Shown here: positions 5,346-26,175 of the stretch, piece by piece | Layout: each line of letters starts with the position of its first letter | Position numbering within the stretch: position 1 is the stretch's first letter | Assembly: GCF_003569045.1 (NCBI RefSeq) | Contig: NZ_BFCB01000003.1 | Coordinates: forward strand, 62,001-126,000 | From: Aggregatilinea lenta | GTDB lineage: Bacteria; Chloroflexota; Anaerolineae; Aggregatilineales; Aggregatilineaceae | Length of the DNA: 64,000 nt | Direction of reading: 5' to 3' | Program-made: the position numbers and the translations under genes | Notes under the pieces: model-generated | The model's input: only the letters and a program-made list of their open reading frames with translations | Told to the model about the DNA's origin: nothing | Database searches by the model: none

Positions 5346-5447
5346 GGTGCTCCGGACCGGCTTGCGCTGCGTCCGGTGCGCTGGCTGTCACAACTCATGC
5401 TATAGTTTAACTGTGCTTATGCTTGGGCATCAACCGTTACAAGTGTT

Positions 5448-6023
5448 ATGGATCAACCCGTTTTACATCTGGTCGAACGCATCCAGGCTGGCGACGAAGA
5501 GGCGCTGCTGGCGCTGCATGCCCGCTATGCGAGCCTCGTCTATTCGGTGGCGTACCGCATCATGAACGATGCGATGGCCGCCGAAGAAGTGACGCAGGAT
5601 ACGTTTATGCGGCTGTGGCACAAGGCGGCGCTCTACGACGCAGGCAAAGGCTCGTTCGTCACGTGGCTGCTGACGATTGCGCGGCGCATCGCAATCGACA
5701 CGTTTCGCCGCCAGCGGCGCGACCCGATCCTGAACACGCTGTGGATCGACGACAACATCGAACAGTGGGAAAATACGTTGAGCGTCGGCCAGAACGGCGA
5801 GCTCGCGCGCTTGATGCGTGTGCTGATGGATGATCTGCCGGGCGAGCAGCGGCAGGCGATCGAGCTGGCATACTTTTATGGCATGACGCACAGCCAGATT
5901 TCAGAATACGTTGATCTGCCGCTGGGCACGGTCAAGACGCGCCTCCGGCTCGGCATGGAAAAACTGCGTGCGGCCTGGATTGCCGACCCATCGACAGATC
6001 CGGCATCTAACGATCATGCGTAG
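5448..6023 (+). CDS. ECF-type RNA polymerase sigma factor
   Basis: A 191-residue extracytoplasmic-function sigma factor. Region 2 includes EEVTQDTFMRLW (about 46-57) and the WLLTIARRIAIDTFRR segment; region 4 includes the helix-turn-helix YGMTHSQISEYVDLPLGTVKTRL (about 143-166), both diagnostic. The gene is followed 42 bases later by an RskA-type anti-sigma gene, the standard layout in which the sigma factor is held at the membrane until the anti-sigma is degraded. The SigK-like group is the closest by architecture. The promoter and regulon are unknown; self-activation is typical of the family. Confidence 0.95.
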   Translation: MDQPVLHLVERIQAGDEEALLALHARYASLVYSVAYRIMNDAMAAEEVTQDTFMRLWHKAALYDAGKGSFVTWLLTIARRIAIDTFRRQRRDPILNTLWIDDNIEQWENTLSVGQNGELARLMRVLMDDLPGEQRQAIELAYFYGMTHSQISEYVDLPLGTVKTRLRLGMEKLRAAWIADPSTDPASNDHA

Positions 6024-6065
6024 AGTCAGTTAACGGAGTATCGTGAAAGTTATCACGCCTGAACT

Positions 6066-16794: not shown

Positions 16795-18330
16795 TCACCC
16801 ACTGACCGCCGGAACCGTCGCCGTGCGCCGGATGGCGTGAGGTGCGCGGACCTCCTGCGCGATGCGCTCCGACACCAGCCGCGCCGAAAGCAGCGCCATC
16901 GGCACACCCGCGCCGGGATGCGTGCTCGATCCGCAGAAGTACAGGTTGCGGTAGCGGGCGTGGCGGTTGTGTGGGCGAAGGTAGCCCACCTGGAACAGCG
17001 TGTGGCTGAGGCCGAACGTCGCACCCTTCGCCAGCCCGTAATTCTGCTCCCATTCGACCGGGGAACACGTCAGCTCGAACTTGATGTGCTGCGCGAGGTC
17101 GGTGATGCCGTCTTGCGCCAGCCGCGCAAAGATCGCCTCGCGGGCGCGGTCGCGCAGCGCGTCCCAGTCCTGCGGGTGTGCGGCGTCCAGGTGGCCGACC
17201 GGGACCAGCCCGAACAGCGTGTCCTGGCCTTCCGGCGCGGCGTCGGGATCGACATGCGCGGGCGCGTGGATGTAAAAGCTCGGCTCGTCGGGCAGGCCGC
17301 GCTGCTTGAAGATCTGGTCGAAGCTGCCGCGATAGTCCTCCGCCAGATAGATGTTGTGCAGCCCGAACTGGTCGTAACGCTTATCCACACCCCAGTAGAA
17401 CATGATCGCGGAGCAAGTGTACTGCTTGCGGTCGAGCTTCTGCGCGGCACGCGCGTCCGGCAGCATATTGCGGTACACGGTCGGCAGATCCGCGTTGGCG
17501 ACGATCACGTCCGCTTCCAGGCGCGATCCGTCAGCCAGCGTGACGCCCGTCGCGCGCGATCCGTCCGTCTCGATGCGCGTCACCGGCGCGTTGTAGATGA
17601 AGCGCACGCCCTTCGAGCGGGCGATGCTTTCGAGGCGCTCGATCACGGCATACATGCCGCCGATGGGGAACCACACGCCGTTGCCCAGCTCGGTGTATTG
17701 CAGCAGCGAATAGGTCGCCGGGGCGTCGAACGGGCTGAGGCCCAGGTACATGTTCTGGAAGGTGAACGCCGCCTTCAGGTACGGGTGCTTGAAGAAGCTC
17801 CCGATGTGGTTGTAGTGTTTGGCGAGCGGCTTCATCTGCCAGATCAACTTCAGATTGGCGGGATTGAAGTACTGCACGGCGTGGGTGAAGTTGCGCCCCA
17901 CGAACTTTTCGAGCGCGAGACGGTAGTGCCGCTCGCCCTCAGCCAGATAGCGCAGCAGCCCGCCGAAGCTGCCCGGCTCCAACGCCTCGACCTGCGCCTG
18001 CATCGCGGGCAGATCGGCGGTCAGCGCCAGGGTTGTGTCGTCGTGGAAGTGAATGCGATAGGTCGGATCGATGCGCCGCAGATCGAGGTGATCCTCCATG
18101 CGCTCGCCCAGTGCCGCGAACGTCTCCGCGAAGACTTCCGGCATCAGGAACAGCGTCGCGCCGACGTCGAAACGGTGGCCGTCGTGCATGATGCGGCTGC
18201 ACCGCCCGCCGGGGGTGGCGTTCTTTTCGAGCACGGTGACGGAATAGCCCTGCTGCGCCAGCCGTGCCGCTGCCGCGATGCCGCCGATGCCTGCGCCGAT
18301 GACGAGTGCGGTTGAACGTGAACGCCCCAT
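16795..18330 (-). CDS. crtI: Phytoene desaturase (CrtI type)
   Basis: A 511-residue FAD-dependent desaturase that converts phytoene to lycopene. The N-terminal dinucleotide-binding motif is VIGAGIGGIAAAARLAQQG with a following EKNATPGGRC; the C-terminus carries the bacterial phytoene dehydrogenase signature region NLYFCGSSTHPGAGVPMALLSARLV. Length is typical for CrtI. It is the last gene of the operon crtB-crtY-crtI, separated from crtY by 227 bases of palindromic repeats, so its expression may be set partly by those structures. Confidence 0.95.
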   Translation of the reverse strand: MGRSRSTALVIGAGIGGIAAAARLAQQGYSVTVLEKNATPGGRCSRIMHDGHRFDVGATLFLMPEVFAETFAALGERMEDHLDLRRIDPTYRIHFHDDTTLALTADLPAMQAQVEALEPGSFGGLLRYLAEGERHYRLALEKFVGRNFTHAVQYFNPANLKLIWQMKPLAKHYNHIGSFFKHPYLKAAFTFQNMYLGLSPFDAPATYSLLQYTELGNGVWFPIGGMYAVIERLESIARSKGVRFIYNAPVTRIETDGSRATGVTLADGSRLEADVIVANADLPTVYRNMLPDARAAQKLDRKQYTCSAIMFYWGVDKRYDQFGLHNIYLAEDYRGSFDQIFKQRGLPDEPSFYIHAPAHVDPDAAPEGQDTLFGLVPVGHLDAAHPQDWDALRDRAREAIFARLAQDGITDLAQHIKFELTCSPVEWEQNYGLAKGATFGLSHTLFQVGYLRPHNRHARYRNLYFCGSSTHPGAGVPMALLSARLVSERIAQEVRAPHAIRRTATVPAVSG

Positions 18331-18557: not shown

Positions 18558-19733
18558 TTACTGGCTCGTCGTGCGGCACAGATCCGTGCGTGGTTGTGGC
18601 GCGGCGGGGCGTGGCGTGAGCGCCTGCCGGACCAGCACCGACAGCACCGACGCGCCGACGGCCAGCCGCTCGATCCAGCCCGCGCGCTCGTCCAGAAAGC
18701 GCAGGATGCGATCGGGCGGGTTTTGCGCGAACAGCCCGGCCATTAGCGGATTCAGCCACTCGCCGCGCTGCTGCATGATCCGCAGCGTGCCCGCATCACA
18801 CAGGCGCGGGAACCGGCGGCTCTCACGCACGCCGAACGGGTCCTCGTCGTGCAGCAGCGCGCGCGCGATCGCCGCCGAGTCGTCCTGAATGCGTTGGAAC
18901 GCGTAACCGGACGACGGCTTGACCCGCCCGCCGCGCACGCCGATGGTCATCACGTGCTGCCCGATACGGCGTGGGAAGCGCCAGTCGCTCAGCGGCGTGA
19001 CTCCGGCTTCCTTCGCCAGCACGCGGTAATGGCTGATGCCCAGCGTGCGCTCGATGTAACCGCGCAGCAGCATATCGAACCCGTCACGGCTGAGCGCCAC
19101 GACCTCAACCAGCGCGCGATGCTCGGTATAGGGCAGCACATAGAAGAAGCGCCACTCGCCGCGCTGCGGCAGGCGGCAGTCGAACAGCGTCGCCACGCCG
19201 GGATCGAAGACGGGTTCCGCCGTTTCGATCTCCCAGCCCTTGAAGTGCTGGTACAGCGTGCGGGCCGTGCCATCCGGGTCGCAGTCACTGGGACGGAAAC
19301 GGCTGTCGAAGGCCCACGTCGCCTGCACGCGCTGCCCGTCGATCGTCACCGCTGCGCCGTGCGCGCCGTCCTCGATGGCCTCGACCGTGCCCGTCACGAT
19401 CTCCGCATGCGGGCAGGCCGCGATCGCCTGGTGCACGAAGGCGACAAAATCCTCGCCGCGCACCGTGTGGTAGCGGTACTCGTCCAGGCCGATGGCCTGC
19501 GCGCTGCCGTCTTCGTGGACCATTTGCAGGCGGTCCCAACTGCGCGCGGCGATGGCGTCGAACGGTGTGGGGCGGTCCGCCCAATAGCTCAGGGTCCGGT
19601 TGGCGGTCTGCGCGATGCTGCGCTCCACGATCAGGATCGAGCGATCGCGCAGCGGGCTTTGCGTCAGCGCGTAGGCCAGACTCAGCCCGGCCACCCCGCC
19701 GCCCGCGATGATGATGTCGTAACGCTGCTGCAT
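18558..19733 (-). CDS. crtY: Lycopene cyclase (CrtY/CrtL family)
   Basis: A 391-residue flavoprotein-fold lycopene beta-cyclase. The N-terminal dinucleotide-binding segment is IIIAGGGVAGLSLAYALT, followed by SYWADR. A family-typical FFYVLPYTEHRALVEV segment and IGVRGGRVKPSSGYAFQRIQ are present. It would cyclise the ends of lycopene to give gamma- or beta-carotene. It lies 18 bases after crtB in the same operon. Whether one or both ends are cyclised cannot be told from sequence. Confidence 0.92.
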   Translation of the reverse strand: MQQRYDIIIAGGGVAGLSLAYALTQSPLRDRSILIVERSIAQTANRTLSYWADRPTPFDAIAARSWDRLQMVHEDGSAQAIGLDEYRYHTVRGEDFVAFVHQAIAACPHAEIVTGTVEAIEDGAHGAAVTIDGQRVQATWAFDSRFRPSDCDPDGTARTLYQHFKGWEIETAEPVFDPGVATLFDCRLPQRGEWRFFYVLPYTEHRALVEVVALSRDGFDMLLRGYIERTLGISHYRVLAKEAGVTPLSDWRFPRRIGQHVMTIGVRGGRVKPSSGYAFQRIQDDSAAIARALLHDEDPFGVRESRRFPRLCDAGTLRIMQQRGEWLNPLMAGLFAQNPPDRILRFLDERAGWIERLAVGASVLSVLVRQALTPRPAAPQPRTDLCRTTSQ

Positions 19734-19751: not shown

Positions 19752-20690
19752 CTAGCGGCTGTGCTGCCAGATGCCCGGCAGGCGTACCAGCTTACCCAGC
19801 GTGCCCACGTGGGCGCGACGGGAGAAAACGTCGTAGTCGTGCGCTTCGATGTCGCGCAGGATGGCGCGATAGAGGCCGCTCGCGGCGGCCACCGCGAAAC
19901 GCCCGTCGCGGTTCAGCAGGGCGATGCCCGGCTCCGCTTCGGCGTACAGGCGGCGGTTGCGCGCGATCTGCATCTGCATGAACGCGCGCCAGCGATCGTC
20001 CACCTGCCCGCGCGCAAGGTCATCATCCGTCAGGTCAAACGCGGCCAGATCTTCGCGTGGCAGATAGACGCGCCCCGCGTCCCAATCTTCGGCCACGTCG
20101 CGCAGGATGTTGGTGATCTGGAGCGCGACGCCGAGCTTGATCGCGTAGGGCAGCGCCGCCGACCCCGCGAAGCCGATGATGTGCATACTCATCAGCCCGA
20201 CCGTCGAGGCGACGCCGTACGAATAGGCCGCCAGCTCCGCGAAGGTGTCGTAGCGCGACTGCTGAAGGTCGCGCGCCACACCGTCGATGAGCTGTTCCGC
20301 GAAGTGCAGCGGGATGTGATAGCGCAGGCGCGCGTCAGCCCAGGCCAGCGCGACCGGATCGTCCAGCGTCGGCTCGGGCGAGAGCGCCCGCTCGCGCCAC
20401 GCGACCAACGCCCCCGCCGCGTCGCCCTGGGCGTGATCTACGAGGTCGTCGGTGGTGCGGCAGAAGGCGTAGAGTGCGCGCACTGCGCGGCGCTTATCGC
20501 CGGACATCCAGCGTGAGGCCAGCGAAAACGACCGGCTGTGCTCGGCGGTCAGGGCCTCACAGTGCGCGTAGGCGTTCTCCAACAGCGTGGGGTCCACGTC
20601 CAACCCGGCGGGGGCGGCGGTGATGGCCCGTACGTCGGAGGCCAGCGCCAGCAGGTTGTATTCCCAGGTTGTCACGTGAAGGGCGTTCAT
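19752..20690 (-). CDS. crtB: Phytoene synthase
   Basis: A 312-residue squalene/phytoene synthase that condenses two geranylgeranyl diphosphates. The two aspartate-rich motifs are present: [11 protein letters not shown] (first DxxxD) and [21 protein letters not shown] (second, DVAED), with the [12 protein letters not shown] and VASTVGLM segments normal for the family. GGGGAG precedes the ATG. It follows a small zinc-protein gene by 33 bases and leads crtY and crtI, so the three-step route from GGPP to a cyclic carotene is encoded here. Confidence 0.96.
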
Positions 20691-20723: not shown

Positions 20724-20924
20724 TTACGATTTGAGCGCTTCGTGCGCCTTGCGCCCGTAGACTTTTTCGTAGGCCTGGCAGGCCGGGCAGAAGCTGCCTT
20801 CGATGTTCTTCACGAAGAAATAGGCGACGCCCTTCTGCTTGTCACGCGCGCGGCGGCAGACGGGGCAGTTCACGCATCGCTTGGCGAGTTCGCGGTCCTG
20901 GTCGGTGATGGTGGTTGTTTCCAT
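20724..20924 (-). CDS. Small CxxC zinc-ribbon-like protein heading the crt operon
   Basis: A 66-residue protein with two cysteine pairs, CVNCPVC (residues about 17-23) and CPAC (about 46-49), spaced for one zinc site, joined by a basic, aromatic loop. I do not recognise the family. The ATG at 20924 has GGAGGG at ideal spacing and is preferred over 20939. It is the first gene after a CRP/FNR-like operator (21002-21015) and lies 33 bases before crtB, so it is probably co-transcribed with the carotenoid genes. A regulatory or assembly role is possible but unproven. Confidence 0.7.
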   Translation of the reverse strand: METTTITDQDRELAKRCVNCPVCRRARDKQKGVAYFFVKNIEGSFCPACQAYEKVYGRKAHEALKS

Positions 20925-21001
20925 GGTGTCCCTCCTCAAAGGTCAACTACTCCTTATTACGAAGTGGGCAAATGTCACGTTGCGCCGGGATCGATAAAGA
21001 A

Positions 21002-21015
21002 GTGATAAAAATCAC
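21002..21015 (-). promoter_or_regulatory. CRP/FNR-family operator upstream of the carotenoid operon
   Basis: A perfect inverted repeat GTGATTTTTATCAC, with GTGA and TCAC arms separated by six bases as in CRP-type sites, is centred 85 bases before the ATG of the small zinc-protein gene. A TAATAA hexamer starts 43 bases beyond its 3' end, which puts the site near -62, the class I activator position. The neighbouring promoter at 21710-21723 has the same site and the same geometry, plus a shared CGATCC-CGGC-CAACG segment downstream. Confidence 0.7.
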
Positions 21016-21101
21016 AAATCTGAGTAACTCGTGAGGCGAACAGGCACGAAAAAGCCCCATGCGCGGCATAGGGCTTTGGGAGCATGGACCGGATCGCGCG
21101 C

Positions 21102-21629
21102 TCAGGCGGCGGCGTGGCTGCGTCGGATGGCGCTGCGCATCGAGGTATACACGACGAGATGGTGGAAGGGCCGGATGATGTTGAAATAGACCCGCCCGCG
21201 CTGGTTGTGATAATGCACGACGGTTATGGTGTAGAAGCGGTTGACGCCCTCACCCAGCGGCTCCGCGACGATGGCCGCCCCGGCGCTCAGGTGCGTATCA
21301 TCGACGGCGCCCAGCCAGAAGCGATCCTCTTCCGCCGCCAGCGTATTGAAGAACGACACCTTGCCGCCCGGCGCGAAGACCAGATCCTCCGGGCGGGTCT
21401 GTCCCTGGCCGATCGGCACGCCGTCGGACGGAATGCCCAACACCCGCACGAGACGCTCGCGTATGCGGTACAGCGCAACCATCCAGCCCGGTTCGTAGGT
21501 CATCGTCGCGGCGACGAACGCGCGCAGATCCAACCGCGCGTCAATGTGCTTGATGTCGATGTGATCGGCATCGTCCATATACGCCGCGAGGGCGGGGAAC
21601 TGGCGAGCGTACTCGATTCCGTGATCCAT
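21102..21629 (-). CDS. DUF2867-family protein
   Basis: A 175-residue soluble protein of the DUF2867 type: the C-terminal YFNIIRPFHHLVVYTSMRSA matches the characteristic PFHxLIV...MLR end of the family, with YTITVVHYHNQRGRVYF before it. Function is unknown. In other genomes DUF2867 domains occur alone or behind NAD(P)-binding domains. The ATG at 21629 is fixed by GAGGAGG just upstream. A CRP/FNR-like operator lies 81-94 bases upstream and is identical to that of the carotenoid operon, so the two units are probably co-regulated. Confidence 0.75.
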   Translation of the reverse strand: MDHGIEYARQFPALAAYMDDADHIDIKHIDARLDLRAFVAATMTYEPGWMVALYRIRERLVRVLGIPSDGVPIGQGQTRPEDLVFAPGGKVSFFNTLAAEEDRFWLGAVDDTHLSAGAAIVAEPLGEGVNRFYTITVVHYHNQRGRVYFNIIRPFHHLVVYTSMRSAIRRSHAAA

Positions 21630-21709
21630 GACTGCCTCCTCAAGAAGTCGTTCACTCACATACCTATACGGGGACGGTCGAGGCGGCGTTGTGCCGGATC
21701 GGGTATTAA

Positions 21710-21723
21710 GTGATAAAAATCAC
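21710..21723 (-). promoter_or_regulatory. CRP/FNR-family operator upstream of the DUF2867 gene
   Basis: The same GTGATTTTTATCAC palindrome as at 21002-21015, centred 87 bases before the ATG. A TATAGG hexamer lies 42 bases beyond it. The match extends beyond the palindrome to ATTT on one side and TT on the other. Confidence 0.7.
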
Positions 21724-25281: not shown

Positions 25282-26175
25282 ATGACGCGCTTTGGCTATG
25301 CCTGCATCTCCGACCTGCTCGGCGTGACGACCAGCCGCACCTGCCGCCTGACGTCCGCCACGCCCGACCGCCTGCGCGAGCTGATCGACATCAACCTGAC
25401 GGCGCTAATGACCATCCTGGAACATAACCGCGCACACGGCTGGGGCCTGTTTCGCATTGGGTCGGGCGTGATCCCCTTCGGCTCGCACTCGATCAATATG
25501 TTGGAATGGGACGCCGAATTCGCCCCGCAGTTGGCCGCCATCGGAACGTTCGCGCTGCGCCATGACATGCGCCTGTCGATGCATCCCGGCCAGTACACGA
25601 TCATCAATTCGCCCAACCCGGACGTGCGCCGCGCGGCGGTGGCGGAGCTGGCGTACGCTGCCCGCTTTCTGGACGCGCTCGGCCTGCCCCCCGCGCATAA
25701 GCTGGTGCTGCACGTTGGCGGCGTGTATGGCGACAAGCCCGCCGCGCTGGCACGTTTCGCAGAGGAGGCGAACCGTCTGCCGGATGCGGTTCGGCGGCGG
25801 CTCGTGGTCGAGAACGACGACCGGCACTATACGCTGGCCGACGTGCTGGCGATCTCGGAGCAAACCGGGTTGCCGGTCGTGTTCGACAACCTGCACGACC
25901 GCCTGCATCCCTCGCCGGAGCCGCCGGAAGTGCTGCTGCCGCGTGTCTTCGCAACGTGGGGCGGGCAGCATGGCGCGCCGAAGGTGCACTTTTCGTCCCA
26001 GGCAACCGGCCAGCGGCCCGGCAAGCACGCCGAGTTCGCCGATCCCGACGAGTTTCGAGCCGTGCTCGATTTGTGCGGGCGGCACGGCGCGTTTGACCTG
26101 ATGCTCGAAGCGAAGGCGAAGGACACGGCGCTGCGAGCGGTCCTGGCGGCGATCGAAAGCGCTGCCGCCACTTAG
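25282..26175 (+). CDS. uvsE: UV damage endonuclease
   Basis: A 297-residue TIM-barrel DNA endonuclease of the UvdE/UvsE family, which nicks DNA 5' of UV photoproducts as an alternative to UvrABC. Family motifs are plain: GYACISDLLGV at the start, RIGSGVIPFGSH, MHPGQYTIINSP, LVLHVGGVYGDK, VVENDDRHYTLADVL, VVFDNLHDRLHP and a C-terminal DLMLEAKAKDTALR. His, Glu and Asp metal ligands lie in these segments. It is a lone gene; no LexA-type box was found upstream. Confidence 0.96.
   Translation: MTRFGYACISDLLGVTTSRTCRLTSATPDRLRELIDINLTALMTILEHNRAHGWGLFRIGSGVIPFGSHSINMLEWDAEFAPQLAAIGTFALRHDMRLSMHPGQYTIINSPNPDVRRAAVAELAYAARFLDALGLPPAHKLVLHVGGVYGDKPAALARFAEEANRLPDAVRRRLVVENDDRHYTLADVLAISEQTGLPVVFDNLHDRLHPSPEPPEVLLPRVFATWGGQHGAPKVHFSSQATGQRPGKHAEFADPDEFRAVLDLCGRHGAFDLMLEAKAKDTALRAVLAAIESAAAT

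What the first reader, a model, noticed from the sequence alone, without database searches (positions are those of the whole stretch)
20924..21723. Twin CRP/FNR-like promoters shared by the carotenoid operon and a DUF2867 gene
Seen: the identical palindrome GTGATTTTTATCAC at 21002-21015 and 21710-21723, each about 85 bases before an ATG, each with a -10-like hexamer 42-43 bases further on (site near -62) and a shared CGATCC-GGC-CAACG block in between. Known: in Thermus, a CRP/FNR-family protein (LdrP) activates crtB as part of a light/B12 response. Inference: a class I activator of that kind controls carotenoid synthesis and the DUF2867 gene together.
Basis: partly seen in the sequence, partly recalled or inferred. 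Interest (0 to 1): 0.7.

Follow-up and report, generated by a model that had tools for sequence, protein, structure and literature searches.

The report
Stress-sigma promoters for carotenoids, shared operator
Two neighbouring promoters, one for carotenoid genes and one for a small unknown gene, look like targets of a cell-envelope stress sigma factor, and both carry the same extra regulator site that may add a second signal.

Summary
GTGATTTTTATCAC occurs exactly twice in the 6.2-Mb genome, both times here; about 0.005 copies are expected. The promoters align at 35 of 42 columns. The "shared block" and "-10-like hexamer" fit the two boxes of an ECF-type promoter, [C/A]AAC-N16/17-CGTA. Those boxes precede the operon's first gene, an unnamed five-cysteine small protein, in 10 of 10 orthologues (random windows 117 of 20,000). 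They precede crtB in another genus and a SigW-like sigma gene in 17 of 18 genomes (1 of 20,000). A matrix built only from relatives' sigma promoters ranks the window's two promoters first and second in the 64 kb. The palindrome is an upstream addition found only in this genome, about 59 bases before the estimated start. A CRP/FNR-type site is plausible, and similar sites precede cydA and hypA. However, none of the five CRP/FNR genes shows the site in its upstream region, the one tested is not LdrP, and Rex is not excluded. Best reading: sigma-driven carotenogenesis with a second, unidentified input. Nothing here tests light or B12.

The parts
21002..21015 (-). Palindromic operator GTGATTTTTATCAC, carotenoid promoter
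21710..21723 (-). Palindromic operator GTGATTTTTATCAC, DUF2867 promoter
20979..20984 (-). ECF-type -35 box CGCAAC, carotenoid promoter (spacer 17)
   Evidence: footprint in 10 of 10 orthologues
20956..20961 (-). ECF-type -10 box CGTAAT, carotenoid promoter
21688..21693 (-). ECF-type -35 box CACAAC, DUF2867 promoter (spacer 17)
21665..21670 (-). ECF-type -10 box CGTATA, DUF2867 promoter
20724..20924 (-). 66-residue five-cysteine protein, first gene of the operon; unnamed family conserved within the bacterial family
19752..20690 (-). crtB-like phytoene synthase
   Evidence: Pfam SQS_PSY 5e-72
18558..19733 (-). lycopene cyclase
   Evidence: Pfam Lycopene_cycl 1.6e-51
16795..18330 (-). crtI-family phytoene desaturase
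   Evidence: TIGR02734 498.9 bits, cut-off 238.1
21102..21629 (-). DUF2867 protein, 175 residues; predicted helix-grip (Bet v 1-like) fold, weak matches
21045..21090 (-). Hairpin followed by T-run between DUF2867 and the carotenoid promoter, likely terminator
   Evidence: fold -18.8 kcal/mol; not listed by the scanner

Best explanation
Each promoter has two layers. The core is an ECF-type promoter, [C/A]AAC-N17-CGTA, most likely read by the autoregulated SigW-like sigma factor at G000:C3:2666641-2667234, which is followed by a membrane-protein gene that is probably its anti-sigma factor. The sigma factor would thus switch on the five-cysteine protein plus crtB, lycopene cyclase and crtI as one transcript, and DUF2867 as another, within a membrane and envelope stress regulon. 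Upstream, centred near -59, an identical palindrome is the binding site of a dimeric regulator, most likely CRP/FNR-like and acting as an upstream activator, which adds a second input, perhaps redox or energy state. The second promoter probably arose by copying the operator-to--35 segment. Shown: sequences, footprints, ranks, absence from relatives. Inferred: which sigma factor, which regulator, activation rather than repression, the signal.
For: Footprint 10 of 10 small-gene orthologues against 117 of 20,000 random windows; independent crtB promoter AGCAAC-N17-CGTAAT in G009; sigma gene's own promoter 17 of 18 genomes against 1 of 20,000; matrix from 16 relatives ranks the two promoters 1 and 2 in the window. 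Sigma best matches SigW, whose consensus is TGAAAC-N16,17-CGTA (PMC2375139, passage). Genome matches of GCAAC-N16/17-CGTAWW: 29 against 13 control, including sites before PspC, Pmp3, LPG_synthase_TM, DUF4013 and DUF4870 genes and the sigma gene. Operator found exactly twice only, at nearly the same distance from both cores (17 and 16 bases to the -35 box).
Against: No transcript or binding data. The genome has many other ECF sigma genes; L091 also has an AAC/CGT-type match upstream. In a 400-kb sample the matrix gives 4 matches at 14.5 or more, 3 called coding (one of them, the L129 site, probably because a start was drawn too early), so a match alone is weak. G009's crtB promoter scores only 11.2. 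DUF2867 relatives show no such promoter. CRP/FNR identity rests on site shape; the recognition helix of L031/L032 (TPETISR) resembles FNR's, which prefers TTGAT (recalled), not GTGAT.
Confidence: 0.72

Rival explanations
1. One reading: a CRP/FNR-family class I activator of the LdrP kind is the main switch, working with the housekeeping sigma factor in a light/B12 response.
For: TGTGA-N6-TCAC dyad near -59 to -62; five CRP/FNR-family genes; LdrP activates crt in Thermus (PMC5401885, passage).
Against: Core boxes are ECF-type and conserved while the dyad is not; no sigma-70 promoter; no CRP/FNR gene with its own copy; L031 far below the LdrP cut-off. Light and B12 untested.
Confidence: 0.1
2. 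The palindrome is an operator of the NADH-sensing repressor Rex or another redox regulator; the sigma core still drives transcription.
For: Rex sites read TTGTGAAW4TTCACAA (PMC2883068, abstract), the window sites TTGTGATTTTTATCACTT. Similar sites precede cydA in 8 of 13 loci, all in this family, and hypA. G009 has the cydA site, but its three matches to the CRP query do not span a CRP DNA-binding domain (genome 86% complete).
Against: GTGAT/ATCAC differs from GTGAA/TTCAC. No Rex-like motif in the fetched loci, which cover only part of the genome. The cydA site is imperfect and may have another binder.
Confidence: 0.25
3. The palindrome has no regulator: the shared AT-rich segment is a copied promoter piece acting at most as an UP element.
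For: Similarity runs beyond the dyad to 35 of 42 columns, as a duplication would give; no matching site in the orthologues.
Against: A near-perfect 14-base dyad retained in both copies while flanks drifted; none of the other 28 sigma-type matches has a comparable dyad.
Confidence: 0.17

Closest known systems
Bacillus SigW/RsiW regulon promoters
   Same: AAC at -35, CGTA at -10, spacer 16-17, autoregulated sigma followed by a membrane protein, membrane-stress targets such as PspC (the Bacillus regulon's content is recalled).
   Different: -35 is [C/T]GCAAC rather than TGAAAC; targets include carotenoid genes; the sigma protein is below NCBIfam's SigW cut-off (157.7 against 209 bits).
LitS of Streptomyces coelicolor and CarQ of Myxococcus xanthus
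   Same: An ECF sigma factor controls a carotenoid operon (titles and passages).
   Different: Those are dedicated light-response sigma factors; here the best candidate is an envelope-stress type, and no photoreceptor was looked for genome-wide.
LdrP of Thermus thermophilus
   Same: A CRP/FNR-like site upstream of crt genes.
   Different: No LdrP found; ECF-type core; no light data; site absent from relatives.
Rex operators (cydA and anaerobic genes)
   Same: TTGTGA-N6-TCAC layout; similar sites before cydA and hypA in this genome.
   Different: Fifth base pair differs from the Rex consensus; placed upstream of the core rather than over it; rex gene not found in the part searched.

Membership tests
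ECF sigma (SigW-type) promoter | AAC in -35, CGT(A) in -10, spacer 16-17 | tested here: met
   both window promoters spacer 17; ranks 1 and 2
ECF sigma (SigW-type) promoter | conserved upstream of orthologous genes | tested here: met
   10 of 10 for the carotenoid-operon promoter; for DUF2867 not seen in relatives
ECF sigma (SigW-type) promoter | cognate sigma gene with the same promoter | tested here: met
   17 of 18 genomes
SigW (as a named protein) | NCBIfam equivalog score at or above cut-off | tested here: not met
   157.7 bits against 209 and 139.4 against 243.1; ECF superfamily TIGR02937 met at 126.2 against 42.9
CRP/FNR class I activation | TGTGA-N6-TCACA dyad | tested here: met
   one outer base differs
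CRP/FNR class I activation | site centred near -61.5 or one or more helical turns further upstream | tested here: inconclusive
   centre -59.5 and -58.5 on an assumed +1; no mapped start
CRP/FNR class I activation | a regulator gene linked to or carrying the site | tested here: not met
   five genes, none
LdrP system | LdrP-family protein | tested here: not met
   L031 34 bits, cut-off 300; L032-L035 not tested against NCBIfam
LdrP system | LitR/CarH photoreceptor and light response | not tested
   no genome-wide search made
Rex operator | TTGTGAA-N4-TTCACAA and a rex gene | tested here: inconclusive
   GTGAT not GTGAA; rex motif (recalled) absent from part of the genome only

The most novel reading that the evidence does not exclude
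A carotenoid cluster has been captured behind the promoter of a conserved five-cysteine gene in an envelope-stress (SigW-type) regulon, and this lineage then added an upstream CRP/FNR-type operator, so that one ECF promoter integrates membrane stress with a redox or energy signal by upstream activation of the ECF holoenzyme; the operator-promoter piece was then copied to recruit DUF2867, perhaps a lipid or pigment carrier.
Probability: 0.25. Interest if true: 0.62.

Novelty: new variant of a known kind. Interest (0 to 1): 0.42.

Why it matters
It would put carotenoid synthesis, usually discussed as a light response, under a general membrane-stress sigma factor in little-studied Chloroflexota, and would be a case where an ECF promoter also takes a classical dimeric regulator. 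It also gives a ready regulon, an autoregulated sigma factor, its promoter motif and an unnamed conserved small protein, for experiments in the phylum.

Tried and rejected
Conservation of the palindrome upstream of crtB: no good copy at the 29 relatives' CrtB loci fetched (of 49 relatives with a match; 8 of the 29 have one or more one-mismatch GTGA-N6-TCAC sites at scattered places), nor in the 500 bases upstream of 79 further CrtB loci, of which 12 have such a weak site (L275 left out as too short). The ECF boxes near crtB were found only in G009/L215 (L264 has a match at -434 and is not counted), so most crtB genes in the order are controlled otherwise. Operator at other sigma-type promoters: none comparable in the other 28. 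DUF2867 relatives (11 loci): neither the operator nor ECF boxes seen; L082 has one imperfect dyad, TGTGAAAATTGACACA. L031-type regulator as binder of the cydA site: presence does not match (G004, G008, G009 have the site without it). Five-cysteine protein: no significant Pfam match and a low-confidence model (pLDDT 69), not searched further. DUF2867 fold: Bet v 1-like matches with TM-scores about 0.4, too weak for a function.

Papers: PMC2375139, PMC6739363, PMC5401885, PMC8103513 seen as passages; PMC2883068 abstract start only. Library searches for Chloroflexota with ECF sigma factor and carotenoid, and for SigW with carotenoid and ECF, listed 1 and 5 papers, none on this subject by title and abstract start; this is not a full literature search. 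The CRP, FNR and LdrP site and helix preferences beyond those passages are recalled.

Full report
What was seen. The palindrome GTGATTTTTATCAC lies on the minus strand at 21002-21015 and 21710-21723. It occurs exactly twice in the 6,202,555-base genome, where about 0.005 copies are expected at the sample G+C of 63%. Within the window, 8 sites with up to 3 mismatches were found against a mean of 1.58 in shuffles, none of which reached 8. The promoters are alike over 42 columns, 35 identical. The genes are DUF2867 (21102-21629) and an operon of a five-cysteine protein (20724-20924), crtB, lycopene cyclase and crtI. A hairpin with a T-run lies between the two units, although the terminator scanner did not list it.

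The core promoter. Orthologues of the five-cysteine protein were found in 10 of 101 genomes, own included, all in the same family. Their upstream regions share [C/A]AAC-N16/17-CGTA: 10 of 10 within 220 bases, nine of them at -57 to -78 and one (L070) at -200; random windows of that length match in 117 of 20,000. In the relatives whose downstream DNA was held, no carotenoid gene was seen after it. Only one other family member, G009, has a close crtB (61% identity; others in the family match at 40% or less); it lacks the small gene but has AGCAAC-N17-CGTAAT 95 bases before crtB. The same sequence appears in record JAFGNU010000061 (L215), likely the same genome.

The sigma factor. PF08281 matches 37 places in the genome, response regulators included. 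Of the 30 loci read, one ECF sigma gene, L084, has CGCAAC-N16-CGTATA at -75; L091 has a looser match. L084's best family is SigW, below that model's cut-off, and its best solved relative is SigW. Orthologues are in 18 of 18 genomes searched; 17 have GCAAC-N16/17-CGTA within 130 bases upstream, against 1 of 20,000 random windows. The exception is L186; the second, distant match in G021 (L191) was left out of the count and has no such promoter. A gene for a protein with a hydrophobic, probably membrane-spanning, segment, unnamed by Pfam and NCBIfam in this genome, follows the sigma gene in most of them and is probably the anti-sigma factor. A weight matrix from 16 relatives' sigma promoters, with no sequence from this genome, puts DUF2867 (16.9) first and the carotenoid promoter (14.8) second in the window, next best 13.9. 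GCAAC-N16/17-CGTAWW has 29 matches in the genome and 13 in the control; several precede membrane or envelope genes (PspC, Pmp3, LPG_synthase_TM, DUF4013, DUF4870) and the sigma gene, while others lie inside reading frames. In a 400-kb sample the matrix gave 4 matches at 14.5 or more, so matches alone prove little; conservation carries the argument. SigW's published consensus is TGAAAC-N16,17-CGTA (PMC2375139), and AAC/CGT boxes with autoregulation are hallmarks of ECF factors (PMC8103513).

The operator. With +1 taken 7 bases after the -10 box, the dyad centres at -59.5 and -58.5 (from the 52.5 and 51.5), near but not at the classical -61.5 (recalled). It lies 17 and 16 bases upstream of the -35 boxes. 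It is missing from the 9 other small-gene upstreams, where only L063 has an imperfect match over its own -35, and from G009's crtB promoter. Of the 28 other sites with up to 2 mismatches, 11 show no long frame over the site (L008, L011, L012, L013, L017, L022, L024, L026, L027, L028, L029), among them sites before cydA (L024), hypA (two, L028 and L029) and a molybdo-enzyme-like gene (L017) (gene names read from the sequences, not searched). Upstream of cydA a related site, GTGGCTTTTGTCACATGA or close, is kept in 8 of 13 loci, all 8 among the 10 family members with cydA, 22 or 24 bases before TAAACT. This suggests a redox regulator using such sites, but not which. The genome has five CRP/FNR-family genes (L031-L035); none has a GTGA-N6-TCAC site (up to 1 mismatch) where its promoter should be. 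L031/L032 carry an FNR-like recognition helix, TPETISR (comparison recalled). Three family members have the cydA site without an L031-type protein. Rex therefore remains open; a recalled Rex motif was absent from the loci held, part of the genome only.

Judgement. The carotenoid operon and DUF2867 share an ECF-type promoter (about 0.85 for the carotenoid one, 0.75 for DUF2867), most likely of the SigW-like factor (0.7). The dyad is a real regulator site (about 0.75), CRP/FNR-like rather than Rex or other at about even odds, and an activator site rather than a repressor site at perhaps 0.55. The LdrP light/B12 analogy has no support beyond site shape. The most interesting point is evolutionary: a carotenoid cluster sits behind a promoter that in relatives serves a small gene without carotenoid genes.

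Noticed in passing
window 20724-20924: Unnamed 66-residue protein family with five invariant cysteines, found in 10 of 101 genomes, all one family, always behind an ECF-type promoter.
   Followed up: partly
L283-L290, upstream of cydA: Conserved site GTGGCTTTTGTCACATGAAAA or close, 22 or 24 bases before TAAACT, in 8 of 10 family members with cydA.
   Followed up: partly
L028/L029, G000:C4:149602-149645: Two GTGA-N6-TCAC-like sites 30 bases apart before a hypA-like gene.
   Followed up: no
window about 5440-6013, strand +: A second ECF-type sigma gene (L092) in the window, without the CAAC/CGTA promoter, and GTGAAAGTTATCAC at 6043 just after it.
   Followed up: no
window 25282-26175, strand +: Reading frame that looks like a UvsE-type UV damage endonuclease (recalled resemblance, not searched), 3.7 kb from DUF2867.
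   Followed up: no
window 21102-21629: DUF2867 model is confident (pLDDT 90.2) with weak Bet v 1-like matches, compatible with a hydrophobic-ligand binder.
   Followed up: partly
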